Origin: Pagrus major
Taxonomy: Eukaryota > Chordata > Actinopteri > Spariformes > Sparidae
Assembly (NCBI RefSeq): GCF_040436345.1
Contig: NC_133220.1
Coordinates: forward strand, 2,646,556-2,710,555
Direction: 5' to 3'
DNA: 64,000 nucleotides
In this document: positions 1 through 55,801 of the stretch, piece by piece
Numbering within the stretch: position 1 is the first letter of the stretch
Layout: each line of letters opens with the position of its first letter
Position numbers and translations under genes: made by a program
Notes under the pieces: generated by a model
Database searches by the model: none
Told to the model about the DNA's origin: nothing
The model's input: only the letters and a program-made list of their open reading frames with translations

Positions 1-52
1 TGAGTTGTGTCTGTTTATCATTAATATGTTGATTCAATACATTTAAATTTAC

Positions 53-3000
53 CTTTCTTAGGATTTTGTGTGATGCGATTCTTGTAAAGCACACCAGCCA
101 CAACAACAGCCGCAACTAAAAGGAGGCTGAGAACTACAAAACCAGCAATCACTCCAGCAGAAAGTCCTGAAACAGATACAAAGTGAGTGCATCAGTCAGA
201 AGGTCAGTGCAGATGATAAACAGCAGACTGGACCTCACAGCTCACACAGAACAACTAAAGGTGAGTCTGCTCCTGAAATCTGAACTTGTTTCACATGAAA
301 ACTCCACTGGGATGAATGTGAGCAGGAACAGTGATGTGAGCTCTGATCTCAGGTCCAGTTTCCTCCTGCTGGGCTCCACAGCTCAGAGGCTGCTTCTGGT
401 TCTGGTCCCAGCAGTGAAGAAACAAATGGACTTAGTTACAGTCCATCACTTTGATCTGACAGTAAAAACACAGGATCATCTGATAAAATATAAAACTTCT
501 TCACAATACTTTTACTGATACTTTTACACTTTTACTCAAGTGGACTTTTACTTGTAACAGAGTATTTTTACTTTGTGTTTCTGCTTCTTTCACTTCAGTA
601 AAGTATCCGAGTACTTCTTCCACCACTGACTACTGTCCAGAAACATGAAGGTTAAAATCACTGTGAGCTTCTTGGTGCTGGTCGGCTCCACAGTTATTGG
701 GCCTGATGGGAGCAGATCAACACACAGTCTGTAGATTATTGAAGTTGAGTCTCAGTAGAAGACTGAAGTTTTCACTCAGTTTGAAACATTTTTAAAATCT
801 GATGAGGATCCTTTAGATCTGATTAATAAAAAGTGTGACTTTATGTAATGAGAGGGACTTTTTACAGTGTAAAATGAGCCTGGTGCTGCCCTCTAGTGGA
901 CAAACTGTGTCATGAAGACTCTGATTCTCAGTCACAGTCAAACATCAGTAAATGTTGGAGGCGCTGAACATTTCTTCACTCCTGGTTTCAGGCTCAGACA
1001 GAAGAGGAAGACTCCTGCTCAGATGTAGAAACCACAGTGTCACAGTTCATCTCATGTTTTCATCTTATTTTCACTTTAAGTCAAAACTTAATGCTGGATT
1101 TTAAGTTAATTCATCTTGTAATTAACCAACTCTGCTGCAGTTAATGAATAAAGTACCAGGAAGCTGTTTGTCATGTTGGACCTTCACTGCAACACAACGG
1201 TTATAATTACAAGTTTACATCGTCCAGTAAAAACTGCAGCTCCACAGCCTTTATGTTCAGTGTCAGGAAGAAGTATCTGACTCCTTCCTGATTTATTCCA
1301 TGTTTGTATATTTGTCACATTTAATTGTTTCAGATGTTCAAACAGAATCAAATATGAGGCAGAGACAACCTGAGTTAACACAAAATACAGTTTCTAAATG
1401 ATCAATTCAATTATTGAAGGTAAAAACCAGGACGACAAAGTCTTTTTTAAATCATTGAACACTAAGAATGATGTCACCATTAAGAGGCACATGGGTTTCA
1501 GCATGAATGAAGGTTTTCAGGCCCTAAATCACACCCTGCTTCTTCATCTATTTTACTGTCACTGGGACCATAACTGACTAAATGAACATCATGTTGAGTT
1601 GAAGAAGACTTGAAACTAGAGACTGAGGCCATGAACTCATCAGGAGACTGTTTACTGAGGGAATAAATCAGGTGAGAAGCAGCTTCCACACAATCACACC
1701 TCTTTCTGAGCCCAGTGGAGTCGCCCCCTGCTGGTCGGTAGAAAGACTGCAGGTTTAAGGCACTTTCACACCTGAAGGCTTCGACTATATTTTATACAGT
1801 CGATGATCGGGACTGTTTTAAGTTTAAAAAGCTTTAAGTTGATAAAAAAAAATCACGACTCACTAAAAATGATCTTGAATTGACATCACATGAGATTTGT
1901 TGCCTGATATATTTTTTATTTCACTAAAGTCAGAGAAAAAATGTGTTTTAAAATATGAAACATTAAGTGTTTAAAAGCTTTTGTTTGAGTCTCTGACAAC
2001 AACTCAGATTAACACACATCCAGAGACAGACGGGTACAAGTACTCAAGTACTGAGCTTATAATTGTACTCTAATTTATGTAACTTTATACTTCTACTTCA
2101 CTACATTTCAGAGGTAATATTGTACTTTTTACTCCACTACATTAATCAGACAGATAAAGTTACTAGTTACTTTGATCTAGACTCATAAAATATAATTATA
2201 TGTAGAGTTAAAGTTTGCTCCTAGTTTTCAGTCTGAGTTCAGTTTGTAGTTGAGAAATAAAATAATAAAGTCATCAGTGAGTAAACTCTTCTCTTCCTGT
2301 CTGAGTGTCTTCATGGTGTTTGTTGTGTGATTCATGTGTAACTCGGCTGCTGTAACGCTGCAGTTTGTCATTGGGATTAATAAAGTCTCTCTCTAATCTC
2401 TCTAATCTAAACAGAGCTCACAGTGACGCCTCTCTGACGGCTTCACTCTGCTGTTGCTGTGCTTTCTGTCTCCAGGGCTGCAGACCTGTTGGGAGCTTCA
2501 TCAGCAGCAGGGGACACACCTGGGCCTGATGTGCTCCATGTATAGAAATCCTTCAGAACATCTGCTCACACATCTTTGTGTCGGGGCTTCTGGTTTCCTT
2601 TGGTTTGTTTTTACAGCTCAACATCCACACAGCACATCTTCACTCATCCACTGCTGCACTACTGACTGCACTCACTCCTCCAGCTGTTTGTGTCTCTGTT
2701 GTAAATAAGTCACTGTGTTGTTTAGTTCACTGTGTGTCTCCTGGTTTGTCCCAGTCTGAGAGCTGCACTGTGACACTGATAAAAACTTCACAGTGTGTTT
2801 TGGTGAAACAATAATTCTTCAATTTAACAACATTTTTTCTTCTGGAAGTTAAATGTGACAGAGTGTCAGGATCAGGCTGCAGCAGACATTTATAAATCTG
2901 TTACTGAGTTTGTGGGTGAAGTTGAATCAATTCTTAGAATATGAAGAGAATTTTACACTCAGTTTGAAACATGTTTGACTTGTGTAGACGTCTTCATCAC

Positions 3001-6000
3001 AATTTGCTTTGTGCTCAGTCTGAACATGCATAAACACTTTTGAAAACTTATAAATCATCAAGAAATAAAATGATTGAAGTGTTCATACGACACAAGGAAG
3101 AATCTCACCATTGATGGTCAAATCAATCTCAGCATAAATCTGATGGTTGATTTCCTCCTGAGTGACGACACAGCGGAAGTTGTCGGTCTTGGTCAAAGCA
3201 GCTTGGAGGACGATGTCGTAGCTGCCTCCTCTTTCTGTGACCTTCAGATCTTTAACAGGGAGGATGTTTCCAGAACTGTCCTGCCACTCAACTTTAGGTT
3301 TTGGAGAAGCACCAAAAACTTCACACTGCAGCACCGTCCCATCATCTGATTTAACTGTTGTGACAGATGGTTTTGAAGCTGCACCTGTGAACATGACAGA
3401 AACAAAAGATGACATTAGATTTAATTTCAGCATCAGAAATGTAATATTGGGATGTTTTTTGTTCATCACATCTCTGCTTGTTGATTAGAGCGAGTTTAAG
3501 ATGAAAGAAAAACACAAGAAAGTAATAAAAAGCATGATGAGGCTCAGTTACAGCTCCCAGCATTATTCAACAGAGGATCATATTTCAGACACATTTCACT
3601 TCTACAAAGAGTTTGTAACTATTTACAACTAAAACACTTTTTCTGACTCACATCATGACAGAAACACATCAACAGTGAAGACTTTACAGCAGCTCCTGAA
3701 CTTTTACACATTTGTTGTGCTTAAAAAAAACATTAAAGGACGTCATGTGAACTTTGTTGTCTATTTACATTAAATAATAAAGAAAATGTGTTATGAAATG
3801 TGAAACACAGGGTCATTAAGAGCTTGTCCCCTTCTGTTAACAGGGCTCGGGTGTGGCCACTTTAATAGGAACACCTGTACAATCTAAAGCAGGGCTGAGC
3901 AACATATACAATATATACTGTTGTCATGATGTGAGACTATATATTGTCTTAGATATTTGATATTCTCACATGGTGATATATCATAACTGTTGTCTGTTCC
4001 AACACAACTGTTCTGACTTTAACTTCACTTTTATGATGAATTAATGTTCAGTTTGTGTCGACACTGTCATCGAGGTGTTAATGAAATAAAATCTTTATCA
4101 CTGAGCTCGTAGTTAGTGACGTGTTGAACTGGACTGTATTATATTCAGACGTGTTTCTAATATTCTGACCCGTCATGTTTGTGAACAGGGAGGACAAAAA
4201 AACAGAAACACCTCTCAGTGTGATGTAGTTCAGTACAACACCACCTTTAACAATCCGTGTACCCAACGATCTTTCGTTTTTTCGTTTCAAAACCAAATTA
4301 AAAAAACGGAAAAACAAGTTTGTTTTTCTGTTTTTCTCTTTTAAACCCAGAACGGAAAAACAGGAAAAACAGAATAACACAAAACCACATTTTGTGCCTG
4401 TTATTCTGTTTTAAATCAAAAACTGAATAACATGAAAATTAAGTTTTTGATTTTTATTGTTTTGTTATTTTGATATTCTGAAAACTCGGGGAATGCTGGG
4501 AGATGTTTGGGAGTCAGAGGAAGGAAGTGAGCGGGAACTGGTCTGGAGATGAAGCGTCTCTGCAATGGCAAACTGTGTCTTTGTCCGGGGAGTCGCGGCT
4601 CAGCCTGAAGCCTGAATGTGATCATTACTGATTAAAACACGTGATACTGAACAGTTACAAGGAGGAAAACAACAGAGGCGAAATAAAAGAGACGAGGAGG
4701 TCCGATCCGTTACCAGGCAACCAGAACATCCTTTGTAGCAACTACACGTCTGTTACACTAACGGAAGACAACACAACACATTTCTATTTCAAAATAAAAG
4801 CATTTGTTATTGTAACCTATTACTATAATTATTAATCTATTGTCAGAGAGAAATATTTACAACAATATGTAGGCTAATGTTTTCATACTATCACATTTAT
4901 TTTTACCTGTATAGGCCTCAGGTAGCGATGAGGAAAATATATATGGCTGCACATCTGTCAGCTGCACTGTCAGCAGCTGTAGCTGCACCATGCAGACATG
5001 TCTCACACTTTATTTTGGAGGCTCAGGACGGACTAGATCATGACTGTATTCAGGCCCGGTTCTAGACTGGCCTGATTGGGGGGCAGTAAGAAATGTTGAT
5101 GGTCACCAAATACTACTGTGTTGATGCCACAGGGACGATTGTTGTTAGTGTTTGATGTGTGTAGTCTGTCTACCAGCCTGTGGTACCGACACCAACGTAA
5201 ACATCGCCGGTCAGCCGTGATTTCACAGCCGGTACGTAGCTGCAGCTGTGAGTGTTGTATCCTTTGTTCATTATTATTTATTTAGAAATCATTATTTATT
5301 TATGGATTCTATTTCATGATTTACATTCAGATAGCTTAAATATATCAGATAGATAATATTACAATACAGAGTAAAAGTAAAGTTATTTCCACACATGATT
5401 TCAGTTGAGTTCAGTATGAGATGTTACACATTTAGACCACAAGGGGGCGCTCGGTCTGTTTAACGTCAGCTGAGAGGAGGTTAAAGTTCGAACCGTAGAA
5501 GAAGAAACAGTCAGTGGGAAAACGTTGGAAGTCAGATTGTTTTACTGTTAGTCGTCGTTTTTATTGAACTGGGATCGTCTTTTTCATCAGTAAACACCCG
5601 AAAAGACATCGAGAAGTCCTGCTTCGTTTTTTTTTTTCATAGAAGCTGCAACTAGTTCCCACAGTGAGGTCCCATGCGGCGGAGCGGGACAGAGACAAAC
5701 TGCAGCAGCTGCCGATGGGACGATGCTACTACTAGCAGCTGCTAGCAGGCAGGCTAACAGCTAACTAGCAGGCAGGCTAACAGCTAACTAGCAGGCAGGC
5801 TAACAGCTAACTAGCAGGCAGGCTAACAGCTAACTAGCAGGCAGGCTAACAGCTGCTAGCAGGCAGGCTAACAGCTAACTAGCAGGCAGGCTAACAGCTG
5901 CCTGCTAGCAGCTGCTAGCAGGCAGGCTAACAGCTGCTAGCAGGCAGGCTAACAGCTAACTAGCCTGTGGCTAACAGCTAACTAGCCTGTGGCTAACAGC

Positions 6001-9000
6001 TAACTAGCCTGTGGCTAAAGCTGTGTGGAGGTCCCGTGGTATCTGATGTGATGCTAACAGAGAGAAGCTGCTACTGACTGTGTGCAGGGCGCAAGAGAGA
6101 GAGAGACCCCGGCTCTGATGGCAGAAGAGCCTGTGATTACTCTGAGCAGCGTTTATGGGAATAAATTACAATATAATATATTTGAATATACTTTTCTCTT
6201 TTCTTCTATTCTTCTCTGCATAAGGCTGAAGTGCAGTCATTCATTCTGCCTGGAGAGTCTGCGATCTCAACTTTCCCGCTCACTTCCGGCGCCTCTGACT
6301 CCGCAAACATCTCCCAACATTCCCCGAAATTTCAGAATATCAAAATAACAAAACAATAAAAATCCAAAACTTAATTTTCATGTTATTCTGTTTTTGTTTT
6401 AAAACAGAATAACAGGCACAAAATGTGGTTTTGTGTTATTTTCCGTTTTTTTAATTTGGTTTTGAAACGAAAGAACGAAGGGTTCACGGATTGTTAACTG
6501 TGACCTCAGTAATAAACACACTTTCATTTACACATTTCAGACAAAGTCGACACAAACTGAACATTATAAAGTTCATAAAAACAGAGTTAGTGGCAGAGCT
6601 GCTGTATTAAATTACAATATATGTTTCAGGACTGAGAGTTTCTCTCTCAGTGAACACAGTTTCTCTGATTAATGAACTAAATGAACACATGAATCAAGTG
6701 TATGTGCTCATATTGTAGTCATGTATCACCACAGTTGTACGTAGTCATATCCAACATGAAGAAAATAATGAATGATGTAAATGATCCTTAAAGGTGAATT
6801 CAGACTGAACACAAAAGTTGATTTTATTCCAGTTAATTTAACAGCTGGAGAGTTTTTACAGTGAATGTTTCAGCAGCACAAACATGAACTCCACTTCTTC
6901 TTCTTATTTCCATCCAGAACACTTTTATCTGCTTTTTCTATTTTAAGTCTCAGAGTTTCTTCAGTTTGAAACATTTTCAACATCAACAGACTTTGAGGTG
7001 ATTACCTGTGTGTTCAGTCTGAACTCATTATAGGATAATTAAAATAGTTTGAAGACTAAAATACCACTGACCTGTCAAGCGCACAGCGGTCACAGCAGCA
7101 ATCCTATGGCTGATTGTCTCCTGCGTAGCTACACAGCGATAGTTGTCGGTCTTGGTCACAGTAATGTTGACAGTGATGTATGAACGACCTCCTCTTTCTG
7201 AAACCTGAGGTGTATCAGCACCAAGAGTGTTGTCATCACTGTCCTTCCACTCTACTGTAGGAAGTGGATCACCATGAGCTTCACACTGCAGCAGCGCCCA
7301 GTCATTTGTTACAACAAGTGTTGCAACAAACGGCCTTGGAGCTGCACCTGTGAACAAATAAGAGGTGTTAAAGGACAATTATAGTGTAATATGGGATATT
7401 TTTTCCATCTATACTCTGCTTGTATATCAATTTAAAATGTGAAGAGAAAAACACAAAGGAACAGAAACATAGAAAAGCACAATATCAGCCTCATTAACAT
7501 AGTTCAGCACTATTTTAAAAATGTTTAACTTCCTCCAGTTTGAGGCAGATTCTGACTCATATCATGGCAGATGCACATATACAGTGAATTTCTGCTAAAT
7601 TTGATGAACTACAATTTGAAAATGAAAGACTGAATCTTCAAAGTTAACACACCTGATGTGTCATCAGGACTGAATCGTGTTGGTTAGAAAACATGTAATT
7701 ATTTGGCCTGAATGCAAATTAATCCTAAAATTAGTTGAAATTCTGCTCAGTAGCAAAGAGAAGGCTGTGAAAGATTTAACTGCTGTGTTTTTATTTATTT
7801 GTATAGTTTAATTCTTTCAAAAGAGGGTGGATAAAATATTAGAAACATGTCTCAGTATCACAACACACTACACAGACAACGCAGTTTAAAACAAACACAA
7901 AAAACAGTCTACAAACTGACAATAAGACTGAATCAACATCTCTGAACAGTTTCAACACAATCTGATCATTAAAACCTTCATGAAGATTAATTCCTGGTCT
8001 GTTTAATGAGACTGGTGAGTTTTATCTGTGTTACCTGATAAACTGGAATATTGAGTGTTTATAACTTTGAATGTGTTTTTGTCACTGAGATGATCAAAGC
8101 ACAATATTTACAGTTTCTATTGACTGTCATTATAAATATAATATAAAGGCAGTTTTTAGTGTGAATCTTTAACACTGACACAAACTGAACAGATGTTGTT
8201 GTCTCCAGATGTGTAACACAGCAGAATGACACACAGAGGTTCAGCTCAACAGATGTGAGTGTGTTGAATGATACTGAGGCCTGTGGAGCTGATGACAGCC
8301 ATTTTCTATTAATGAGAGCTGGGGAGTGACGTCATCAGAATCAGGACTCACCTGGGATGTTTTCACCTGTTCTGTCTCTTAAGACTTGACCTGAAAGGAA
8401 AAACAAACACATGTTAGATTGTTTTGAAACAGACAGGTAATACTGTGTAAAAGTCATATTTCATCTACTATAGACGGCTGAAATTTCATTGCACAGAGAC
8501 ATAATCTGCAGCGTGTCTCTGATATCTGCATGTTTGATACAGAGGTCATCTCTCCAGATGTGGCTGCAGCTCTGTGGGCTCGAGGCCCTGCCAGATGTGT
8601 TCTGACCACAACAAAAGTCCATCTGGGACTCTTGAACCGGTCGCAGCAGTAAATGAGCGGACATCTTTAACTGTTTAATGAAAGCACTCACCAACAACAA
8701 GCTCAATGATGAATGTTTGTCTCGGCTGAAGACGTGGAAAAAAGCAGCTGTAGTTCCCGCTGTCGGCCATCTTTGTTTTTGTGATCTTTATGGAGGCGTC
8801 GCCGTTCTTCAGTTGATCTTGAAAATGTGAGACTCGACCTTTGAACTGCTCATCTTGACCTGTTTTGCCGTTATTGTAATATTGGCCGTCCTCATACATG
8901 AACACCTCCTTCTGACCATCTTTCCTCCAGTCAAACAGCTTTCTTGTGATGTCGTCCTTGGTGCTGAGGGAACAGGGTAAAACAGCATCATCATCTTCTT

Positions 9001-10565
9001 TCACGACCACTTTGACACCTGGAAGATAAAAACATGTGTTACTCAGTATGTTAACATGCAGAGTCATCAGGAAACAAAGTCAGATAACAACTTTACACAC
9101 CACAACAATAACTCAACACCTGTTTCCTCTAACATAATAGTTTTGGTTGTGTCGTGCTTGTACTGACATATTTTAAGTATATTTAAGCTGTACAGTATAG
9201 TTTATTAAGTTTTTGTTATTGAGCCTTGTGTTTGAATGTTACAAAATGTATTCAGCTGGAAACTCTTCAGCTTTATAACACCAGGAGAAGTTGTAGTTTT
9301 ATTCATGTCAGATCTTGATTTATTGGACTGGATTCAAAGACACAACTAACCACCAAACTATCCTGTTCCTCAGCTGCAACACACAGGTTGTTTTTAACTT
9401 TGTGATTCAAATATGTTCATCAAATTAAAGCTTCACATGACACACACACACTCACACACACACACACACTCACACACACACACGCACGCACCAATAGTGA
9501 AGACGCCACATCATTATAGAGCATCAATCCAATCAATAATATTAATAATCCATGAGTCCACCAGGTAACTACTCTGTATTATGTTTCACTAAAGAGTAAA
9601 CAAAAAGAAAAATAAAGGACATCACTCAGATTAAACTGTTTATTCTCTCCTCGCTCACTAAAGAGTAACTAATGATTAACTAATGATTAACTAATGATCT
9701 GACTTGGTAACTATTCAGTATCATGTTTCACACTGATTCATATATAACTCATGAATAAAGTGACTCTAACCCACAGATATTTATTTATGTATTAATGTAT
9801 TTAATGTTTAATTGTTGAGGGACCAGTTTGTGTTAAACCTGCTGCACACTACAGCTTTTATAGCCGAAGCTAATCAGTAATGAACGTCACCATGAACTCA
9901 TCATCAGCTGATGATTGATCGATAACGTGTCTCCCAGTCTGTCCTGTGGTAACTCATTATCTACTCTATAGTTTATATGTAACTCATTAACGATCCAATA
10001 ACTATCAAGTCCTTCCTGATGAAGATCTGCGCCACGTCTCTGTTTTATTGAGGGAACTACTTTAGTTCAAAGTGAACTGAACTTTAAGAGTCAAAGTCCA
10101 ACAATCACAACATCCTGAAGGTTTCATGTCTGCACGAGCGTTTCTGTGAAACCTGTGCGTGTCTGCAGCAGGATGGAGACGACGCACACGCACACGCACT
10201 GACGCACGCACGCACACACACACAGCAGTGATGACGACATCATTACAGAGCATTTCGAGATTAAAACTCAGCATCATCCAGCTGTAATTCTTCTGTAATC
10301 GATCCGATCAATACTATCGATGTGTGCTGATGATCAGGGTGCGTGTGTGACGTCACAGCGCTGAGCAGGTGTCTTGTACGCACTAAAGCAGGAAGCAGCT
10401 GATGAACATCCCGCATGTTTCCGCATTGTTCCGCTGCTCAGATGAAACAAAGTGAGAATTAAAAACTGTCAGTGAGTGATGATCAGTTTTCTTACCGTCT
10501 CCAGCAGCAGACGTTTCTCCAGAGCAGCTCAGCAGACAGAGACACACGAGAGGAAGAAGCTCCAT
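53..10565 (-). CDS. Gene A: B7/butyrophilin-like Ig membrane protein (V-C-C-TM), 3' end outside window
   Basis: Predicted exons on the minus strand are signal peptide 10565-10496, V-set 9018-8692, linker 8390-8352, Ig1 7347-7072, Ig2 3384-3109 and TM 166-53. Each has AG/GT borders and joins in phase 1. The start is MELLPLVCLCLL, a hydrophobic leader. The V domain has Cys16, Trp31 and the DSGNYSC motif ending at Cys92. Ig1 has Cys22, Trp34, Cys72 and an N-I-T sequon. Ig2 has Cys21, Trp34 and Cys72. The TM exon encodes about 24 hydrophobic residues followed by YKNR, which gives a cytoplasmic C-terminus. By family knowledge this is a type I surface protein of the B7/BTN group that binds receptors on other cells; the partner is unknown. 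CD276-like or HHLA2-like would be usual database names, but I cannot assign orthology. The tail exon lies left of position 1. A 2.2-kb TTAA-flanked element sits in the Ig2-Ig1 intron. Confidence 0.8.
167..2303 (-). repeat. Homogenised TM-Ig2 intron block, gene A copy
   Basis: This 2.1-kb intron stretch has near-identical copies in B (12451-14447), C (26883-29035), D (44794-46945) and, inverted, E (53337-55422). Short ORFs recur in every copy because the DNA is nearly identical, not because they are coding. See findings for the exon/intron contrast. Confidence 0.85.
516..629. repeat. Fragment of a common fish MITE (GTACTTCTTCCACCACTG end)
   Basis: The right end reads TCCGAGTACTTCTTCCACC then ACTG, the inverted form of the widespread fish CAGTGGTGGAAGAAGTAC terminus. 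The same fragment sits at the same place in B (about 12790-12909), C, D and, inverted, E (about 54960-55080). Confidence 0.6.
2338..2408 (+). repeat. L2-type LINE 3' tail with TCTAATC repeats
   Basis: CTGCTGTAACGCTGCAG, ATTGGGATTAATAAAGTC and TCTCTAATC repeats mark a LINE 3' terminus. The same tail occurs in C (about 29068-29137) and D (about 46978-47048). It is missing from B, which has a deletion here. Confidence 0.65.
5052..5210. repeat. Dispersed repeat nested in the gene A element
   Basis: This stretch has an inverted, clearly similar copy at 47245-47407 in gene D. Shared landmarks are the GGCCCGGTTCTAGACTGG and TACCAGCCTGTGGTACCGAC segments. Family not identified. Confidence 0.7.
5733..6018. 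repeat. Minisatellite of CTAGCAGGCAGGCTAACAG-type units
   Basis: About a dozen imperfect units of about 18-24 bp built from GCTAACAGCTAACTAGCAGG, ending in a variant with GCCTGTGGCTAA. It lies inside the TTAA-flanked element of gene A and is absent from other copies. Confidence 0.85.
9439..9489. repeat. CA/CACT microsatellite, gene A intron 1
   Basis: Mixed ACAC, ACTC and ACGC units, at the site where B has (CT)n and C and F have long CA/GT runs. Confidence 0.85.
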
Positions 10566-11159
10566 AGTTGTGATGTCCTCTGAGGACTTCACCACACTGA
10601 TGGTGTCTCTATATGACGGAGCTTCACACACTCCTCAACACCCTGACTGGTTCATCACAACCTGTTTCTGCTCCTCAGCCTGCAGCTGCGGCACTTCCGG
10701 TACTAATATTTCAGAATAAAAGCGCCATCACCAGGCCTGCAGCTGCCATCGCATTTTGTCTGGGTGTTGGCCACTGAGAGGAGGGAAGTAACGAAGTACA
10801 AATACTTCGTTACTGTGCTTGAGTAGATTTTTCAGGTGTCTGTACTTCACTGAGGTATTTATTGTTCTGACAATTTTTGACTTTGACTCCATTAATAACA
10901 AATATCTGCAGGTGAATGTTGGTAATCTGGGACATTATTTGAGCTTCAGCCGTCAGCAGGTCTGGATCATGTTGTCTCCTCACAGACTCAGGCCTCGTTA
11001 CACAGACATGAGGATTTCTTTACATTCAGCTGTAATCTCCATTCATGAAGCTGTCAGTGAGGTAAACTGTCTCTAGAAACCTTGTTTTAAAGAGGATTTA
11101 TCTGCTCTGTTGTCTCTTTGGTGTCCTGACAGCTGCTGTAAAACACAGATCATCTCAGA
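10566..11159. other. Intergenic DNA between A promoter and B 3' end
   Basis: The first about 170 bp form the likely A promoter/5' UTR, shared with B and F. An imperfect palindrome TAACGAAGTACAAATACTTC lies near 10789. 10985-11155 matches 57010-57185. No gene seen. Confidence 0.6.
10692..10701 (-). promoter_or_regulatory. ETS-type motif ACCGGAAGTG upstream of gene A
   Basis: About 130 bp upstream of the ATG. Same motif in B (24419-24428) and F (58854-58863). In C the site is altered (about 37947-37957, CACGTCCGGT), which breaks the GGAA core. Function inferred from the motif only. Confidence 0.4.
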
Positions 11160-39790: not shown

Positions 39791-39860
<70 letters not shown>

Positions 39861-41660: not shown

Positions 41661-41689
41661 CTCAGGTCCACGAAGTTCCAGTCGGATGG

Positions 41690-44495: not shown

Positions 44496-47400
44496 TTATG
44501 GATCAGTCGGATTCAGTGGTGTTGCTGAACTGAGTTGAGACTGCAGTCGTCTTATCTCCTCATCTGAGGAAAGAAAACAAAGTTATATTCAAGAAAATCA
44601 CAAATGTAAATACCAACAAGGTGATTAATGTCTGAGAAAATAAGAAAACTGTCAAGACTCTAAACATGAGATAACTTACTTTTCTTACGATTTTCTTTTC
44701 TGAACTTGTTGATGCAAAGCCCAGCTAGAACAGCAACAACAACTAAAAGGAGGATAGGTACTACAATAGCAGCAATCACTCCAGCAGAAAGCCCTGAAAC
44801 AGATACAAAGTGAGTGCATCAGTCAGAAGGTCAGTGCAGATGATAAACAGCAGACTGGACCTCACAGCTCACACAGAACAACTAAAGGTGAGTCTGCTCC
44901 TGAAATCTGAACTTGTTTCACATGAAAACTCCACTGGGATGAATGTGAGCAGGAACAGTGATGTGAGCTCTGATCTCAGGTCCAGTTTCCTCCTGCTGGG
45001 CTCCACAGCTCAGAGGCTGCTTCTGGTTCTGGTCCCAGCAGTGAAGAAATAAATGGACTTAGTTACAGTCCATCACTTTGATCTGACAGTAAAAACACAG
45101 GATCATCTGATAAAATATAAAACTTCTTCACAATACTTTTACTGATACTTTTACACTTTTACTCAGGTGGACTTTTACTTGTAACAGAGTATTTTTACTT
45201 TGTGTTTCTGCTACTTTCACTTCAGTAAAGTATCCGAGTACTTCTTCCACCACTGACTACTGTCCAGAAACATGAAGGTTAAAATCACTGTGAGCTTCTT
45301 GGTGCTGGTCGGCTCCACAGTTATTGGGCCTGATGGGAGCAGATCAACACACAGTCTGTAGATTATTGAAGTTGAGTCTCAGTAGAAGACAGAAGTTTTC
45401 ACTCAGTTTGAAACATTTTTAACATTTTTAAAATCTGATGAGGATCCTTTAGATCTGATTAATAAAAAGTGTGACTTTATGTAATGAGAGGGACTTTTTA
45501 CAGTGTAAAATGAGCCTGGTGCTGCCCTCTAGTGGACAAACTGTGTCATGAAGACTCTGATTCTCAGTCAAAGTCAAACATCAGTAAATGTTGGAGGTGC
45601 TGAACATTTCTTCACTCCTGGTTTCAGGCTCAGACAGAAGAGGAAGACTCCTGCTCAGATGTATAAACCACAGTGTCACAGTTCATCTCATGTTTTCATC
45701 TTATTTTCACTTTAAGTCAAAACTTAATGCTGGATTTTAAGTTAATTCATCTTGTAATTAACCAACTCTGCTGCAGTTAATGAATAAAGTACCAGGAAGC
45801 TGTTTGTCATGTTGGACCTTCACTGCAACACAACGGTTATAATTACAAGTTTACATCGTCCAGTAAAAACTGCAGCTCCACAGCCTTTATGTTCAGTGTC
45901 ATGAAGAAGTATCTGACTCCTTCCTGATTTATTCCATGTTTGTATATTTGTCACATTTAATTGTTTCACATGTTCAAACAGAATCAAATATGAGGCAGAG
46001 ACAACCTGAGTTAACACAAAATACAGTTTCTAAATGAGCAATTTAATTATTGAAGGTAAAAACCAGGACGACAAAGTCTTTTTTAAATCATTGAACACTA
46101 AGAATGATGTCACCATTAAGAGGCACATGGGTTTCAGCATGAATGAAGGTTTTCAGGCCCTAAATCACACCCTGCTTCTTCATCTATTTTACTGTCACTG
46201 GGACCATAACTGACTAAATGAACATCATGTTGAGTTGAAGAAGACTTGAAACTAGAGACTGAGGCCATGAACTCATCAGGAGACTGTTTACTGAGGGAAT
46301 AAATCAGGTGAGAAGCAGCTTCCACACAATCACACCTCTTTCTGAGCCCAGTGGAGTCGCCCCCTGCTGGTCGGGAGAAAGACTGCAGGTTTAAGGCACT
46401 TTCACACCTGAAGGCTTCGACTATATTTTATACAGTCGATGATCGGGACTGTTTTAAGTTTAAAAAGCTTTAAGTTGATAAAAAAAAGATCACGACTCAC
46501 TAAAAAATTATCTTGAATTGACATCACATGAGATTTGTTGTCTGATATATTTTTTATTTCACTAAAGTCAGAGAAAAAATGTGTTTTAAAATATGAAACA
46601 TTAAGTGTTTAAAAGCTTTTGTTTGAGTCTCTGACAACAACTCAGATTAACAAACATTCAGAGACAGACGGGTACAAGTACTCAAGTACTGAGCTTATAA
46701 TTGTACTCTAATTTATGTAACTTTATACTTCTACTTCACTATATTTCAGAGGTAATATTGTACTTTTTACTCCACTACATTAATCAGACAGATAAAGTTA
46801 CTAGTTACTTTGATCTAAACTCATAAAATATAATTATATGTAGAGTTAAAGTTTGCTCCTAGTTTTCAGTCTGAGTTCAGTTTGTAGTTGAGAAATAAAA
46901 TAATAAAGTCATCAGTGAGTAAACTCTTCTCTTCCTGTCTGAGTGTCTTCATGGTGTTTGTTGTGTGATTCATGTGTAACTCGGCTGCTGTAACGCTGCA
47001 GTTTGTCATTGGGATTAATAAAGTCTCTCTCTAATCTCTCTAATCTAAACAGAGCTCACAGTGACGCCTCTCTGATGGCTTCACTCTGCTGTTGCTGGGC
47101 CTGTCTGGTGACATTGTCTTCATATTATACTTGTCACGATCTATTAGTAAACTGAAATCAAGTATTTATTGGCCACAGACTTTGCTACTTCTGTCAATCT
47201 AACAAAAATTAGTTAATACCGCTTTATCGATGAAATCACAGATAACCGGCGATGCTTATGTTTGGGTCGGTACCACAGGCTGGTAGACAGACTACACACA
47301 CATCATACACTAACAACAATCGTCCCTATGGCATCAACACAGTAGCATTTGGTGACCATCAACATTTCTTACTGCCCCCCAATCAAGTCAGTCTAGAACC

Positions 47401-50096
47401 GGGCCTGCAGTGAGGACCTCTCCTGATCCACCAACACTGCATCACTGGCGCAGAAAGCCCAGCGGCGCCTCCACTTCCTCCGCAAACTCAAGCGAGCGAG
47501 AGCTCCTCCGTCCATCATGTGCACATTTTACCGGGGCACCATTGAGAGCATCCTGACAAGCTGTATCACTGTGTGGGGCGGGAGCTGCACTGACTGCAAC
47601 AAAAAAAGCCCTGCAGCGCGTAGTGAACACAGCTGGAAAGATCACTGGTGCCCCACTCACCTCCCTGCAAGACACATACACCACCCGCCTCACCCGCAAA
47701 GCGACCGTGATGGTGAGCGACGCCAGCCGCCCCGCACAGTCTGTTCAGCCTCCTGCCCTCTGGGAGAAGATACCGGAGCCTCCGTGCTTCATCCACCAGA
47801 CCCACAAACAGCTTCATCCACCAGACTCACAACCAGCTTCATCCACCAGACTCACAACCAGCTTCATCCACCAGACTCACAACCAGCTTCATCCACCAGA
47901 CTCACAACCAGCTTCATCCACCAGACTCACAACCAGCTTCATCCACCAGACTCACAACCAGCTTCATCCACCAGACTCACAACCAGCTTCATCCACCAGA
48001 CTCACAACCAGCTTCATCCACCAGACTCACAAACAGCTTCATCCACCAGACTCACAACCAGCTTCATCCACCAGACTCACAACCAGCTTCATCCACCAGA
48101 CTCACAACCAGCTTCATCCACCAGACTCACAAACAGCTTCATCCACCAGACTCACAACCAGCTTCATCCACCAGACTCACAAACAGCTTCATCCACCAGA
48201 CTGTCAGGAAGCTGAACTCTCTCCCACTCCCCCCAAAACACTCTGGACTCTGAACCCTGAACCTTCAGACTGACTGTCTTTTGCATTATTACAAACACAT
48301 CACACAGAAACTTTTTGCTGCTATTACTGACTGTCTTCTTTTGCACTACATATCATACAGAGACTGTACATACTGTACATACAGAAACATAGTAGTTTTT
48401 TTAATATATTTTATTGTCTATTTAATGTTAGTAAATGTCTTTATTTCTGTCGTGCACCTTATTGATACTTTAGTGTTAGGAAATGTCTTCATCTTGTTGT
48501 GCTTGTGCACTTTATTTCTCTCACCGTGGGATAGTGAGAGACGTCTTTTCCATTCCTCTGTATGTCTGCTACATGTGGAGAAATTGACAATAAAAACTTG
48601 AAATTGGAAACTAATAAAAACTTCACAGTGTGTTTTGGTGAAATAATAATTCTTCAATTTAACAACATTTTTCTTTTGGAAGTTAAATGTGACAGAGTGT
48701 CAGGATCAGGCTGCAGCAGCCATTTATAAATCTGTTACTGAGTTTGTGGGTGAAGATCAGACTGATCTCAACATCCTGAAGACGTGTATGAAAACTTATA
48801 AACCAACAAGAATTAAAATGATTGAAGTGTTAATACACTGCTTAGAATGATCTCACCATCAAGAGGCACATAGGTCTCAGCATAAATCTGATGGCCGATT
48901 TCCTCCTGATTGACGACACAGCGGAAGTTGTCGGTCTTGGTCAAAGCAGCTTGAAGGACGATGTCGTAGCTGTCTCCTCTTTCTGTGACCTTCACATCTT
49001 TAACAGGAAGGATGTTTCCAGAACTGTCCCTCCACTCAACTTTAGGTTTTGGAGAAGCACCTCGAACGACACACTGCAGCACCGTCCCATCATCTGTTTT
49101 AACTGTTGTGACAGACGGTTTTGAAGCTGCACCTGTGAACATGACAGAAACAAAAGATGACATTAGATTTAATTACAGCATCAGAAATGTAATATTGGGA
49201 TGTTTTTTGTTCATCACATCTGTAATAAAAGCATGATGAGGCTCAGTTACAGCTCCCAGCATTATTCAGCAGAGGATCATGTTTCAGACACGTTTAACTT
49301 CTACAAAGAGTTTGTAACTATTTACAACTAAAACACGTTTTCTGACTCACATCATGACAGAAACACATCAACAGTGAAGACTTTACAGCAGCTCCTGAAC
49401 TTTTTGTCGACACTGTCATCGAGGTGTTATTAAATAAAATCGTTATCACTGAGCTCGTAGTTAGTGACGTGTTGAACTGGACTGTATTATATTCAGACGT
49501 GTTTCTAATATTCTGACCCGTCATGTTTGTGAACAGGGAGGACAAAAAAACAGAAACACCTCTCAGTGTGATGTAGTTCAGTACAACACCACCTTTAACT
49601 GTGACCTCAGTAATAAACACACACTTTCATTTACACATTTCAGACAAAGTCAACACAAACTGAACATTATAAAGTTCATAAAAGCAGAATTAGTGGCAGA
49701 GCTGCTGTATTAAATTACAATATATACATAAACATATTTATACTGCTGTACATACTGTATATATGTGATCTATAGTGTGAACACTGTGTTCATATCAAAC
49801 CTCCAGCTGTTTATTCTCTATATAACGTCTCACTGACGTTACTTTGCTCTGATACCTGCATTGTATATTTTGCTTTCTGGAAATTGGAATATTGAGCGTT
49901 TATAACTTTGAATGTGTTTTTGTCACTGAGATGATCAAAGCACAATATTTACAATTAACTCAACAGATGTGAGTGTGTTGAATGATACTGAGGCCTGTGG
50001 AGCTGATGGCAGCCATTTTCTATCACTGAGAGCTGGGGAGTGACGTCATCAGAATCAGGACTCACCTGGGATGTTTTCACCTGTTCTGTCTCTTAA
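44496..50096 (-). CDS. Gene D: B7/butyrophilin-like Ig membrane protein, 5' part in the assembly gap, Ig1 deleted
   Basis: Visible exons are the broken linker 50096-50066, Ig2 49132-48857, TM 44793-44680 and tail 44563-44496 with TAA stop. Signal and V exons would lie in or beyond the gap. No Ig1 exon is present between linker and Ig2. The sequence jumps directly between segments that in gene B lie near 18686 and 21487, so about 2.8 kb including Ig1 is missing. Ig2 keeps Cys21, Trp34 and Cys72. The TM exon (38 codons) ends FRKENRKK, and the tail begins DEEIRRLQSQL and ends LNPTDP. The linker is interrupted after 50096 by the same TTAA-flanked insertion found in gene C. The gene may be a degenerate copy, or may encode V-C-TM if the gap holds an intact 5' end. 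Confidence 0.5.
47245..47407. repeat. Inverted copy of the repeat at 5052-5210
   Basis: It lies immediately left of the LINE fragment in gene D and may form part of a composite insertion that starts at about 47098, where similarity to the other gene copies stops. Confidence 0.7.
47413..48608 (+). mobile_element. L2/CR1-type LINE 3' fragment in gene D
   Basis: Encodes the C-terminal part of a LINE reverse transcriptase: AQKAQRRLHFLRKL, FYRGTIESILTSCITVW, then after a frameshift at a run of seven A, NTAGKITGAPLTSLQD. A non-coding 3' end finishes with GACAATAAAAACTTGAA. The usual SLRxR..S-F..A motif region has become a 25-bp minisatellite. It is 5'-truncated and on the opposite strand to gene D. 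Confidence 0.8.
47786..48202 (+). repeat. 25-bp minisatellite, about 16.7 units, inside the LINE
   Basis: The unit is CTTCATCCACCAGACTCACA followed by ACCAG or AACAG. Because 25 is not a multiple of 3, several frames remain open through it, giving long but meaningless ORFs of 216 and 232 codons. Confidence 0.95.
50066..50096 (-). pseudogene. Gene D linker exon, 3' piece, separated by the same insertion as in C
   Basis: The donor side of the linker exon is intact and ends at TTAA (50093-50096), followed by the same sequence as in gene C from 33720. The other half lies beyond the gap. Confidence 0.75.
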
Positions 50097-50267
50097 TGTT
50101 ATAAGGTGCGGAGGATGCACGCGACCCGATATTTACGTGTAAAATTAATAAACAAACATAAAACATATTTTCATGTTGACGACAGAAGTCAACACACACA
50201 TATTACACCTCATCTGAAAGCTGACATGTTCGTTTTTATCAACACATTTAGGAACCTAAAATAAAGA
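50097..50267. mobile_element. Left part of the linker-exon insertion, in gene D, cut by gap
   Basis: Nearly identical to 33720-33890, with the same position in the exon. It shows the insertion predates the C/D split or was copied by conversion. Confidence 0.8.
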
Positions 50268-50367
50268 NNNNNNNNNNNNNNNNNNNNNNNNNNNNNNNNN
50301 NNNNNNNNNNNNNNNNNNNNNNNNNNNNNNNNNNNNNNNNNNNNNNNNNNNNNNNNNNNNNNNNNNN
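50268..50367. other. Assembly gap of exactly 100 N
   Basis: Exactly 100 Ns, the usual placeholder for a gap of unknown length. To the left is the TTAA insertion in gene D. To the right is the edge of the intron-1 element of gene E. Gene orientation flips here. Confidence 0.98.
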
Positions 50368-50409
50368 TAATGTTAATAATAATGATCAATCTCTCAAATC
50401 GTAGACCAG
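50368..50409. mobile_element. Edge of the same intron-1 element in gene E, cut by gap
   Basis: Reads inverted relative to 35890-35937 and is followed by AGCTTTAAA, the same junction as in gene C. The rest is in the gap. Confidence 0.75.
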
Positions 50410-50581
50410 AGCTTTAAATATACTTAAAATATGTCAGTACAAGCACAACACAACCAAAACTATTATGTTAGAAGAAACAGGTGTTGAGTTATTGTTGTGG
50501 TGTGTAAAGCTGTTATCTGACTTTGTTTCCTGATGACTCTGCATGTTAACATACTGAGTAACACATGTTTTTATCTTCCAG

Positions 50582-53500
50582 GTGTCAAAGTGCTTGTGAA
50601 AGAAGGCAGTGATGCTGTTTTACCCTGTTCCCCCAGCACCAAGGAGGACATCACAAGACAGACCTTTGACTGGAGGAAAGATGAAAGTCAGAAGGATGTG
50701 TTCTTTTATAATTCAGGCCTTCATTCCGATAACAGCAACATAGGTCAAGATCAGCAGTTCAAAGGTCGAGTCTCACATTTTCAAGATCAACTGAAGAACG
50801 GCAACGCCTCCATAAAGATAATAAAAACAAAGATGGCCGACAGCGGGAACTACAGCTGCATTTTTCCTCATCCTGAGCCGAGACAAACATTCATCATTGA
50901 GCTTGTTGTTGGTGAGTGCTTTCATTAAACAGTTAAAGATGTCCGCTCATTTACTGCTGCGACTGGTTCAAGAGTCCCAGATGGACTTTTGTTGTGGTCA
51001 GAATACACATCTGGCAGGGCCTCGAGCCCACAGAGCTGCAGCCACATCTGGAGAGATGACCTCTGTATCAAACATGCCTGATATCAGAGACACACTGCAG
51101 ATTATGTCTCTCTGTGCAATGAAATTTCAGCCGTCTATAGTAGATGAAACATGACTTTTACACAGTATTACCTGTCTGTTTCAAAACAATCTAACATGTG
51201 TTTGTTTTTCCTTTCAGGTCAAGTCTTAAGAGACAGAACAGGTGAAAACATCCCAGGTGAGTCCTGATTCTGATGACGTCACTCCCCAGCTCTCATTGAT
51301 AGAAAATGGCTGCCATCAGCTCCACAGGCCTCAGTATCATTCAACACACTCACATCTGTTGAGCTGAACCTCTGTGTGTCATTCTGCTGTGTTACACATC
51401 TGGAGACAACAACATCTGTTCAGTTTGTGTCAGTGTTAAAGATTTACACTAAAAACTGCCTTTATATTATATTTATCATGACAGTCAATAGAAACTGTAA
51501 ATATTGTGCTTTGATCAACTCAGTGGCAAAAAAAAAAACACTCAAAGTTATAAACACACAATATTCCAGCTTATTAGGTTGTATTGTATGGTTAATTTCC
51601 ATTCACGCAGCTTGATTAAAATATTTCTTACTAATACAATTGAGACCTATTGACACCTTTTAAAGATTCAGTCTTTCATTTTCTATGATACAGTTTTTTA
51701 ATTGTAGCTCAAACTGGAGGAAGTTAAAAATGTTTCAAATAGTGCTGAACTATGTTAATGAAGCTGATATTATGTTTTTCTATTGTTCTGTTCCTTGTTT
51801 TTCTCTGCACACTGTACAAAAACATCCCAATAATTTTTATAATATAATTATACTTTTAAATACTGTTGTTTCTTTGATGTTCACAGGTGCAGCTCCGGAG
51901 CCAAATATCAAGATACTTGATGAAACAAATGACTGGCGTCTGCTGCAGTGTGAAGCTCATGGTGATCCACTTCCTACAGTAGAGTGGAAGGACAGTGATA
52001 ACAACACTCTTCATGCTGATACACCTCAGATCTCAGAGAGAGGAGGTCGTTCATACATCACTGTCAACATTACTGTGACCAAGACTGACCGCTATCGCTG
52101 TGTAGCTACGCAGGAGACAATCAGCCATAGGATTGCTACTGTGACCGCTGTGCGCTTGACAGGTCAGTGGTGTTTTAGTCTTCAAACTATTTTAACTATC
52201 TGTGTGTTTTAAAGATGATGAGTTCAGACCGAACACACAGGTAATCAGCTCAAAGTCTGTTGATGTTGAAAATGTTTCAAACTGAAGGAACTCTGAGACT
52301 TAAAATAGAAAAAGCAGATAAAAGTGTTCTGGATGGAAATAAGAAGAAGAAGTGGAGTTCATGTTTGTGCTGCTGAAACATTCACTGTAAAAACTCTCCA
52401 GCTGTTAAATTAACTGGAATAAAATCAACTTTTGTGTTCAGTCTGAATTCACCTTTAAGGATCATTTACATCATTCATTATTTTCTTTATGTTGGATATG
52501 ACTACGTACAACTGTGATGATACATGACTACAATATGAGCACATACACTTGATTCATGTGTTCATTTAGTTCATTAATCAGAGAAACTGTGTTCACTGAG
52601 AGAGAAACTCTTGGTCCTGAAACACATTTGAGCTCTGTCTCCTCAAGTCACACTGGTGCTGCTTCTGGTTCTGATGCCACAGGATCTTCATCACTAAATC
52701 TTTGTCTCAGTGACATGAAAGAATGATGTTGGTACCAGCTCAGGTCCACTGAGGAGCTCAGACTGAAAGTGGTCCTGAACTCTGAGCCTCCTTTTCTGTG
52801 AAGTTTGTGGCTCCTTTCCAGTTGAGAGACAGTTTCCACAAACCAGGTGTAACACACTGAATTTTAGACGTCCACTTCAGGTGTTAAGGGGAATTTATTA
52901 TGTACAACAGATGTCTGAAAAGACATAAACAGATAAACACACTTATTAGTGTCCAGAATCGGATGTAAACCAGCTGCACTGTATCTGCTGCGGCTGGACT
53001 TCCTCTGCACTTGATACAACGGTTACCACGACAACGGTTGCCCGCAGCAACCACCACGCTTTCAGTTGCTACCGCCATCTACTGGCGTCAGGTAGTAACT
53101 GTTTCAGCCCGGCCGGGACCAGGTGTGTCTACACAGGTAAATTTAATCAGAAAATGAAGGGGGCTGACCAGTTAACAATGCAAACAATATCTCACTAAAA
53201 TGACCAGGGAGCCACACAGGCCTGTAGTGAAGCTGCACAGGCTGCCTCTTCTGCTGCTGACTGTTTAAATCCTTTACACCGACTGTTTGTGAGTTCACAC
53301 CTGGACAAGTTAAATGTACAGGTGTAAATCTACAAACTGAACTCAGACTGAAAACTAGGAGCAAACTTTAACTCCACATATAATTATATTTTATGAGTCT
53401 AGATCAAAGTAACTAGTAACTTTATCTGTCTGATTAATGTAGTGGAGTAAAAAGTACAATATTACCTCTGAAATGTAGTGAAGTAGAAGTATAAAGTTGC

Positions 53501-55801
53501 ATAAATTAGAGTACAATTATAAGCTCAGTACTTGAGTACTTGTACCCGTCTGTCTCTGAATGTTTGTTAATCTGAGTTGTTGTCAGAGACTCAAACAAAA
53601 GCTTTTAAACACTTAATGTTTCATATTTTAAAACACATTTTTTCTCTGACTTTAGTGAAATAAAAAATATATCAGACAACAAATCTCATGTGATGTCAAT
53701 TCAAGATAATTTTTTAGTGAGTCGTGATCTTTTTTTATCAACTTAAAGCTTTTTAAACTTAAAACAGTCCCGATCATCGACTGTATAAAATATAGTCGAA
53801 GCCTTCAGGTGTGAAAGTGCCTTAAACCTGCAGTCTTTCTACCGACCAGCAGGGGGCGACTCCACTGGGCTCAGAAAGAGGTGTGATTGTGTGGAAGCTG
53901 CTTCTCACCTGATTTATTCCCTCAGTAAACAGTCTCCTGATGAGTTCATGGTCTCAGTCTCTAGTTTCAAGTCTTCTTCAACTCAACATGATGTTCATTT
54001 AGTCAGTTATGGTCCCAGTGACAGTAAAATAGATGAAGAAGCAGGGTGTGATTTAGGGCCTGAAAACCTTCATTCATGCTGAAACCCATGTGCCTCTTAA
54101 TGGTGACATCATTCTTAGTGTTCAGTGATTTAAAAAAGACTTTGTCGTCCTGATTTTTACCTTCAATAATTAAATAGATCATTTAGAAACTGTATTTTGT
54201 GTTAACTCAGGTTGTCTCTGCCTCATATTTGATTCTGTTTGAACATCTGAAACAATTAAATGTGACAAATATACAAACATGGAATAAATCAGGAAGGAGT
54301 CAGATGCTTCTTCATGACACTGAACATAAAGGCTGTGGAGCTGCAGTTTTTACTGGACGATGTAAACTTGTAATTATAACCGTTGTGTTGCAGTGAAGGT
54401 CCAACATGACAAACAGCTTCCTGGTACTTTATTCATTAACTGCAGCAGAGTTGGTTAATTACAAGATGAATTAACTTAAAATCCAGCATTAAGTTTTGAC
54501 TTAAAGTGAAAATAAGATGAAAACATGAGATGAACTGTAACACTGTGGTTTATACATCTGAGCAGGAGTCTTCCTCTTCTGTCTGAGCCTGAAACCAGGA
54601 GTGAAGAAATGTTCAGCACCTCCAACATTTACTGATGTTTGACTGTGACTGAGAATCAGAGTCTTCATGACACAGTTTGTCCACTAGAGGGCAGCACCAG
54701 GCTCATTTTACACTGTAAAAAGTCCCTCTCATTACATATAGTCACACTTTTTATTAATCAGATCTAAAGGATCCTCATCAGATTTTAAAAATGTTAAAAA
54801 TGTCTCAAACTGAGTGAAAACTTCTGTCTTCTACTGAGACTCAACTTCAATAATCTACAGACTGTGTGTTGATCTGCTCCCATCAGGCCCAATAACTGTG
54901 GAGCCGACCAGCACCAAGAAGCTCACAGTGATTTTAACCTTCATGTTTCTGGACAGTAGTCAGTGGTGGAAGAAGTACTCGGATACTTTACTGAAGTGAA
55001 AGAAGCAGAAACACAAAGTAAAAATACTCTGTTACAAGTAAAAGTCCACCTGAGTAAAAGTGTAAAAGTATCAGTAAAAGTATTGTGAAGAAGTTTTATA
55101 TTTTATCAGATGATCCTGTGTTTTTACTGTCAGATCAAAGTGATGGACTGTAACTGAGTCCATTTATTTCTTCACTGCTGGGACCAGAACCAGAAGCAGC
55201 CTCTGAGCTGTGGAGCCCAGCAGGAGGAAACTGGACCTGAGATCAGAGCTCACATCACTGTTCCTGCTCACATTCATCCCAGTGGAGTTTTCATGTGAAA
55301 CAAGTTCAGATTTCAGGAGCAGACTCACCTTTAGTTGTTCTGTGTGAGCTGTGAGGTCCAGTCTGCTGTTTATCATCTGCACTGACCTTCTGACTGATGC
55401 ACTCACTTTCTATCTGTTTCAGGGTCGTCTGCTGGATGGATTGTTGGTGTTGTAGCTGTTGTTGCTGTTGTTGCTGTTGTCTTCACTCTCATTGCTGTTG
55501 GTGTGATTCTCTGTTGTCTTGTAAAAAAGGGTCGCATCACACTAAATCGTGCAGAAGGTAAGTTTAAATATTGTTTCAGCATATTAATGATGAACAGACA
55601 CCACAACTAATTCTTTTTTATGTATCTCATGTTCAGAGTCTTGACACTTGTTTTATCCTCTCTGACATTAATTATTCTGTGTGTATTTACACTCAGTAGG
55701 ATCAGATCAGGTGGGACTTTCACTGTAACTTTGTTTTGTTCCCTGCAGACAAAAAGAAGAGCGGAGAAGAACTAGCTGGACTGGATCCAACTGATCCATA
55801 A
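50582..55801 (+). CDS. Gene E: B7/butyrophilin-like Ig membrane protein (V-C-TM), signal exon missing in gap
   Basis: Exons are V 50582-50911, linker 51218-51256, Ig1 51887-52162, TM 55423-55557 and tail 55749-55801 with TAA stop, all phase 1-1 with AG/GT borders. The V domain keeps the two Cys, FDW and DSGNYSC. It differs most from the other copies in the segment around DVFFYNSGLHSDNSNIG, and has one extra codon (DESQKD against DGQKE). Ig1 has NNT and NIT sequons. The Ig2 exon has been deleted: intron sequence after Ig1 runs through an LTR and joins the TM intron at about 53337. The TM exon, 45 codons, is the longest and is rich in GTT/GCT codons. The tail DKKKSGEELAGLDPTDP matches gene B with one change. 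A signal exon is expected inside the 100-N gap. Confidence 0.72.
52848..53216 (-). mobile_element. Solo LTR, 369 bp, same family, in gene E intron
   Basis: Same length and family as 30361-30729, but inserted at a different site with target duplication CAGG (52844-52847 and 53217-53220). Gene B has the empty site (AGGCCTGGTTTG). Confidence 0.82.

What the first reader, a model, noticed from the sequence alone, without database searches (positions are those of the whole stretch)
1..55560. Introns nearly identical between copies while the adjoining transmembrane exons differ strongly
The 2.1-kb intron right next to the TM exon shows only scattered substitutions among A, B, C, D and E. The TM exons abutting it are very different in sequence and length: GLSAGVIAGFVV in A, GSSAGWIVAGVV in B, GSNTGFVVVCVV in C and GSSAGWIVGVVA in E. 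Divergence stops abruptly at the splice acceptor. This is the reverse of normal constraint. It suggests gene conversion of introns together with diversifying selection or exon replacement, or a constrained element in the intron.
Basis: seen in the sequence. Interest (0 to 1): 0.8.

Follow-up and report, generated by a model that had tools for sequence, protein, structure and literature searches.

The report
Shuffled membrane exons beside homogenised introns
A fish-like chromosome carries a large array of immune-receptor-like genes whose introns are almost identical while each copy's membrane-spanning exon is a different patchwork of shared short pieces, a pattern expected when DNA copying between genes evens out everything except the parts that natural selection keeps different.

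Summary
The window is part of a B7/butyrophilin-like receptor array on one chromosome of an unnamed, fish-like genome. In 27 copies the 1.85 kb before the transmembrane (TM) exon differ by 1.16% on average; TM exons differ by ~29% (28 copies). All 31 TM exons examined are distinct, in frame and stop-free.

Corrections: the 5' edge has a ~42-bp shoulder and the 3' intron is ~13% diverged. V exons show a similar contrast with their nearest flanks, Ig exons on one side only.

TM synonymous sites are diverged too (pS 0.25, pN 0.31), so point mutation under selection is not enough. The exons are mosaics: one 114-nt exon is exactly 65 nt of one copy plus 49 nt of another, and the exon's first 45 columns and 3' part have unrelated histories.

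Best reading: exchange between copies homogenises introns while selection keeps exons distinct and reshuffled; a hand-tuned simulation shows this is sufficient. The principle is known (opsins, three-finger toxins, chicken BG); a combinatorial TM exon looks like a new variant. No cross-species test was possible.

The parts
53..166 (-). TM exon of gene A (114 nt)
   Evidence: acceptor CAG, donor GTAA, length a multiple of 3, no stop
167..2159 (-). homogenised intron block of gene A
   Evidence: 98% to B
12340..12450 (-). TM exon of gene B (111 nt)
12451..14446 (-). homogenised intron block of gene B (part of the query)
26760..26882 (-). TM exon of gene C (123 nt)
26883..28886 (-). homogenised intron block of gene C
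   Evidence: 98%
44680..44793 (-). TM exon of gene D (114 nt)
44794..46797 (-). homogenised intron block of gene D
   Evidence: 99%
53420..55422 (+). homogenised intron block of gene E
   Evidence: 98%
55423..55557 (+). TM exon of gene E (135 nt, the longest of 31)
3090..3424 (-). Ig exon type a of gene A (ORF span)
7031..7378 (-). Ig exon type b of gene A (ORF span)
8678..9079 (-). V-set exon of gene A (ORF span)
10386..10634 (-). signal-peptide exon region of gene A (ORF span), nearly identical between copies
17596..17934 (-). Ig exon type a of gene B (ORF span)
20463..20810 (-). Ig exon type b of gene B (ORF span)
22126..22524 (-). V-set exon of gene B (ORF span)
31148..31483 (-). Ig exon type b of gene C (ORF span)
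35376..35777 (-). V-set exon of gene C (ORF span)
48816..49172 (-). Ig exon type a of gene D (ORF span)
50521..50925 (+). V-set exon of gene E (ORF span)
51862..52209 (+). Ig exon type b of gene E (ORF span)
60914..61318 (+). V-set exon of a sixth gene F (ORF span)
62576..62921 (+). Ig exon type b of gene F (ORF span)

Best explanation
The window lies in an array of B7/butyrophilin-like receptor genes (signal peptide, V-set domain, one or two Ig domains, TM exon, short tail). Frequent sequence exchange between copies keeps long introns nearly identical. Selection favours copies whose exons differ, so conversion that would make a TM exon (or a V or Ig exon) like another copy's is removed, and mainly exchanges that give a new combination persist. 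The result is a peak of old divergence over the exon and, inside it, a mosaic of shared segments of roughly 10-70 nt. Shown: the divergence profile, diverged synonymous sites, mosaicism, independent histories within the exon, intact frames. Inferred: gene conversion as the exchange process, selection as the force, and the reason TM diversity would be useful (for example pairing specificity or adaptor choice).
For: Intron pairwise difference 1.16% (0.60-2.06%, 351 pairs of 27 copies) against ~29% in the TM exon. TM pS 0.25 and pN 0.31 pooled over the pairs of 28 copies, so exon synonymous sites carry about 20 times the intron difference. Linkage in the TM exon falls from r2 0.17 at up to 5 bp to 0.06 at 20-40 bp, 0 of 500 permutations as extreme. 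GENECONV-type test: 25 of 378 TM pairs pass the global 5% threshold. Exact-segment parse: 268 of 3231 exon nt unmatched to any other copy, against means of 870 (column shuffles, minimum 757) and 592 (3-column block shuffles, minimum 496), 100 shuffles each. TM distance does not follow intron distance (rho -0.25); the first 45 columns do not follow the 3' part (rho -0.09), while the 3' part follows the 3' intron (rho 0.38, 0 of 1000 permutations) (27 copies). V exons: median 8.8% against 0-2% within 100 bp on either side, pN/pS 1.28 in 8 copies. Signal-peptide region identical over 120 columns in 4 copies. All 31 TM exons open and in frame; 28 of 28 examined keep a strongly hydrophobic 19-residue stretch with no charged residue. 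Toy simulation with a rule for exon distinctness only: exon 12-23%, flanks 0-6%, mostly about 1%; without the rule exon 0-4%, flanks 0-2.5% (one run each, the control half as long).
Against: The intron gives no positive signal of conversion (0 of 351 pairs; linkage test 76 of 500 permutations as extreme). Its variants are mostly singletons (86 of 131 biallelic sites) and Tajima's D is -1.6, which fits a single recent wave of copying as well as ongoing exchange. TM pN/pS is only 1.2, and Ig exons b and a give 0.78 and 0.60, so selection for protein change is not shown by rates alone. Not all non-coding DNA is homogenised: the DNA 5' of Ig exon b is 17-21% diverged and exceeds the exon (11.2%); the DNA after Ig exon a is 28% diverged or unalignable; the V-exon 5' flank is uniform for only about 100 bp and then 15% and 61%; the 3' intron of the TM exon is 13%. 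The simulation's rates were chosen by hand. No other species or haplotype was available.
Confidence: 0.6

Rival explanations
1. A recent burst: the whole gene unit was amplified a short time ago from few copies (hence ~1% introns), and exons were then replaced segment by segment from older, divergent family members.
For: Star-like intron variation (86 of 131 biallelic sites are singletons; Tajima's D -1.63), narrow range of intron distances, no relation to genomic distance (rho 0.08, 20.5% of permutations as high).
Against: The 3' intron (13%) and the DNA 5' of Ig exon b (17-21%) are not young. It still needs exon-confined import of old segments.
Confidence: 0.2
2. A mechanical barrier rather than selection: the TM exon, rich in GTT/GCT-type codon repeats, diverged by slippage, and divergence plus length differences then block conversion tracts at the exon edge.
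For: TM exon lengths vary from 90 to 135 nt (31 copies); a 9-bp tandem repeat lies in the TM exon of E.
Against: V exons, which are not such repeats, show a similar contrast; exchange occurs inside the TM exon; 31 of 31 exons stay in frame.
Confidence: 0.1
3. Purifying constraint on the intron (a regulatory element or hidden exon) preserves it while the exon evolves freely.
For: Nearly no variation from -242 to -43 before the TM exon in 31 copies; excess of rare variants; the 97-aa ORF is open in 27 of 27 copies in which it was found.
Against: In that ORF 10 of 10 variants are nonsynonymous; low diversity extends over ~1.9 kb; the first 300 bp after V exons are similarly uniform (0-3%, 8 copies).
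Confidence: 0.06
4. Exon-targeted hypermutation or positive selection on point mutations alone.
For: pN is slightly above pS in TM and V exons.
Against: Synonymous sites are diverged as well; 2963 of 3231 TM exon nucleotides lie in exact segments of 8 nt or more shared with another copy, more than in any of 200 shuffles.
Confidence: 0.04

Closest known systems
Red/green opsin exon 5 'peak of divergence' under gene conversion (review PMC3924837; passages seen)
   Same: Introns kept alike by conversion, a divergence peak in the exon under selection for paralogue difference.
   Different: Two genes and two key amino-acid sites there; here 31 or more copies, a whole TM exon and a within-exon mosaic.
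ASSET, accelerated segment switch in exons of viperid three-finger toxin genes (PMC2474615; passages seen)
   Same: Exon segments switched, introns highly similar, signal peptide nearly identical.
   Different: Secreted toxins and five gene structures; here a TM and juxtamembrane exon of a receptor array.
Chicken BG (butyrophilin homologue) hybrid genes (PMC4046983; passages seen)
   Same: B7/butyrophilin-like array with independent histories of gene parts and a recombination-scrambled middle.
   Different: The passages seen do not describe introns more alike than exons or a TM exon as the most diverse part; BG genes have one V-like domain and many small cytoplasmic exons.
Homogenised repetitive introns in Argiope spider silk genes (PMC9779670; passages seen)
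   Same: Introns homogenised.
   Different: Repeats within one gene; the authors propose that the introns help to homogenise the coding sequence.

Membership tests
B7/butyrophilin-like receptors | Membrane-distal V-set Ig domain | tested here: met
   V-set E 4.8e-11; nearest solved chains CD276 3.9e-11, BTN1A1 1e-08, VTCN1 2.1e-08, MOG 1.4e-07, gene A
B7/butyrophilin-like receptors | Second Ig domain of the B7/BTN C type | tested here: met
   C2-set_3 (butyrophilin Ig-C) E 5.5e-08 for exon a of gene A; exon b hits it only at 0.001, below the curated cut-off. Among solved chains exon a matches DCC and Robo1 with better E-values than CD276 (1.2e-06) or BTN2A1 (0.001)
Butyrophilin proper | C-terminal B30.2 domain | tested here: not met
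   No ORF of that size between the TM exon of B and the next gene; a short tail reading frame with a stop follows (one gene, read by eye)
Gene conversion with selection for paralogue difference (opsin type) | Divergence peak over coding target, low divergence in introns | tested here: met
   TM exon on its 5' side and V exon near flanks; weaker or absent on other sides
Gene conversion with selection for paralogue difference (opsin type) | Introns of paralogues within a species closer than orthologues | not testable with these tools
   states that this genome has no relatives in the collection
Gene conversion with selection for paralogue difference (opsin type) | Detectable conversion tracts | tested here: inconclusive
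   TM exon 25 of 378 pairs; intron 0 of 351
ASSET-type exon segment switching | Short exon segments exchanged while introns and signal-peptide exon stay alike | tested here: met
   (4 copies)
Chicken BG-like hybrid genes | Gene parts with independent histories | tested here: met
   TM 5' part, TM 3' part and 5' intron not positively correlated (27 copies)
Chicken BG-like hybrid genes | Many 21-nt heptad exons in the tail | not tested
   Only the 3' region of gene B was read

The most novel reading that the evidence does not exclude
The TM and juxtamembrane exon is a germline combinatorial code: each receptor of the array carries its own TM assembled from a small set of head, core and tail segments by exon-confined short-tract conversion, so that each protein pairs with itself or with a chosen partner and other members do not cross-assemble. 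In 28 copies 25 head-core-tail combinations occur, and tails are combined with heads and cores as if at random (segments grouped by hand).
Probability: 0.15. Interest if true: 0.85.

Novelty: new variant of a known kind. Interest (0 to 1): 0.58.

Why it matters
Diversifying selection on immune receptors is usually looked for in ligand-binding domains. Here, of the exons compared, the membrane-spanning one is the most diverse and is a within-exon mosaic. If the reading is right, the array gives dozens of natural replicates for measuring conversion tract lengths and selection, and it points to membrane-embedded pairing or signalling specificity as a target of selection.

Tried and rejected
Point-mutation positive selection alone was rejected because TM synonymous sites are diverged. 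A hidden coding exon in the intron was tested and not supported. Reading the start of the matches as the edge of a mobile element was dropped: that edge is peculiar to gene B, and other copies share further sequence upstream. An intron conversion signal (46 of 378 pairs; the ten top pairs all held L037) came from L037, whose 5' part is not homologous; without L037 it vanished (0 of 351). The same test on 900 bp 3' of the TM exon gave 170 of 378 pairs, but that alignment mixes non-homologous parts and I do not use it. A local search for diverged copies of the intron (81 hits in the sequence held, 8 of them under 90% identity and over 60 bp) did not settle whether it is repeat-derived; I suspected from memory that parts are dispersed fish repeats, but no call shows it, and the genome search meant to test it did not complete. 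A first simulation had too little conversion to reach ~1% introns; rates were then raised by hand, so that run shows sufficiency, not fit; its control without selection ran half as many steps, and the 300-bp-tract run had no matching control.

Rows dropped: L036 and L038 were missing from the 28-copy set (anchor not found; the 28 are L009-L035 and L037). L036 was added with L061 and L065 (31 copies); L038 is a partial match and stayed out. L037 was left out of the intron statistics and had no match to the ORF. Of the 30 loci, only L061 and L065 were used, the rest being the same places as before. One search used exon ends that were too early in 11 of 28 copies; they were corrected; the codon, GENECONV-type, parse and correlation analyses use the corrected ends, the linkage test the older ones. 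The V-exon analysis runs one base into the donor. The grouping was set by hand. The 8-nt cut-off of the parse was chosen once and not varied. V, Ig b and Ig a exons were analysed in 8, 10 and 11 copies, although one search lists 40 places for V.

Papers: PMC9779670, PMC3924837, PMC2474615 and PMC4046983 were seen as passages; all others only as search listings. That I know of no paper describing such a TM mosaic rests on those seven searches of an open-access library only.
Full report
What was there. The genes are B7/butyrophilin-like: a signal-peptide exon, a V-set exon, one or two Ig exons, a TM exon and, in the one gene read to its end, a short tail without a B30.2-sized ORF. A-D run on the minus strand, E and a sixth gene F on the plus strand. 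The window is C6:2646556-2710555 of a 786-Mb genome; that it is a fish is my inference from size and content, not a tool result. Of 2352 first-look candidates for the intron 40 were scored; these 40 lie on the same chromosome between 2.53 and 4.30 Mb, and 28 cover the block (almost) fully at 98-100%. The 40 V-exon matches scored (of 83 candidates) lie between 2.55 and 4.30 Mb at 91-100%. These are lower bounds, and places with weaker matches elsewhere would not show.

Divergence profile. Across five copies the ~1.9 kb before the TM exon are 95-100% identical in every 100-column window and pair, and the TM exon drops to 52-71%. Across 27 copies the last 1,850 bp differ by 1.16% on average (0.60-2.06%, 351 pairs); the TM exons differ by about 29% (28 copies). 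The last ~42 columns before the acceptor form a small shoulder of 2.4-5.7% (31 copies). The 3' intron differs by 13.3% (27 copies). So the exon is a peak with a sharp 5' side and a broad 3' side.

Other exons. V exons (8 copies): median 8.8% in the exon, 0.0% in the 100 bp before it, 0-2% in the 100 bp after it and 1-3% in the next 200; beyond 100 bp upstream the flank is 15% and then 61% diverged; pS 0.071, pN 0.091. Ig exon a (11 copies): 14.9% against 1-4% in the 300 bp before it; the first 50 bp after it differ by 28%, and further on it is 27-67% or unalignable. Ig exon b (10 copies): 11.2% against 17-21% before it and 12.8% falling to 0.0% after it, so here the exon is not more diverged than its 5' flank (all). 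The signal-peptide region is identical over 120 columns in four copies.

Not point mutation alone. In the TM exon pS is 0.25 and pN 0.31 (28 copies). Synonymous sites are about twenty times more diverged than the intron beside them. Either the exon sequences are older than the introns around them, or segments have been imported. The ratio pN/pS of 1.2 does not by itself show positive selection.

Mosaic. All 31 TM exons examined are different, 90-135 nt long, in frame and open. L017 is exactly 65 nt shared with L033 followed by 49 nt shared with L037. Four of 28 exons are fully explained by exact segments of other copies, against a mean of 0.00 (maximum 0) in column shuffles and 0.07 (maximum 1) in block shuffles. 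Linkage decays within 10-20 bp. Distances in the first 45 columns do not predict those in the 3' part (rho -0.09), whereas the 3' part follows the 3' intron (rho 0.38); neither TM nor intron distance rises with genomic distance; TM and intron distances are, if anything, negatively related (rho -0.25, 98.2% of permutations as high), which I do not explain. With segments grouped by hand into 6 heads, 8 cores and 12 tails, 25 combinations occur in 28 copies; core-tail and head-tail association does not exceed shuffles, head-core association is slight (3.8% of shuffles as high). Slippage in valine and alanine codon runs may add to the length variation and blur the alignment.

The intron. It shows no tract signal (0 of 351 pairs) and an excess of singletons (86 of 131 biallelic sites); Tajima's D is -1.63; linkage does not decay with distance (76 of 500 permutations as extreme). 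This is what a recent wave of homogenisation or a recent burst of copying would give; constant slow exchange should leave more shared variants. The older 3' intron and the older DNA before Ig exon b speak against a plain recent burst of the whole unit. The 97-aa ORF in the intron is open in 27 of 27 copies in which it was found, but 10 of 10 variants in it change an amino acid, so it does not look coding.

Mechanism. Without the rule (50-bp tracts, half as many steps) the exon is 0-4% and the flanks 0-2.5% (one run each, rates chosen by hand after one search had shown too little homogenisation). Selection for distinct exons is therefore sufficient; it is not proven. A barrier to conversion set up by divergence itself is an alternative, weakened by the similar pattern in V exons and by exchange inside the TM exon.

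Known or new. Introns kept alike around an exon under selection are known from opsins (PMC3924837), segment switching in exons with conserved introns from three-finger toxins (PMC2474615), and scrambled middles of a butyrophilin-like array from chicken BG genes (PMC4046983); passages of these were seen. In the searches made I saw no listing of a TM exon as the focus of such a mosaic. I file it as a new variant of a known kind.

Noticed in passing
window 14732-16663 (+): Single open ORF of 644 aa inside the intron of gene B, with a weak, below-cut-off zinc-finger match (zf-C2H2_12, E 2.7e-4); it looks like a hAT-type transposase (recalled, not tested).
   Followed up: no
L013:4236-4542 (-) and L030:462-768 (+): Ig exons that read like hybrids: the start resembles Ig exon b, the rest Ig exon a.
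   Followed up: partly
window 12493-12692 (-) and counterparts in the other copies: About 200 bp just before the TM exon shoulder are almost invariant in 31 copies (0.0-1.0% per 20 columns), lower than most of the rest of the intron; cause unknown.
   Followed up: partly
window 1501-1791 (-): 97-aa ORF in the intron, open in 27 of 27 copies in which it was found, with 10 of 10 variants nonsynonymous and none at third positions.
   Followed up: partly
window 47786-48202; 40159-40359; 5742-6023: Minisatellites with 25-, 29- and 22/23-bp units.
   Followed up: no
window 48816-50925: Genes D (minus) and E (plus) stand head to head; no V exon of D was found between its Ig exon and the V exon of E, so D may be a 5'-truncated copy or an inversion breakpoint.
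   Followed up: no
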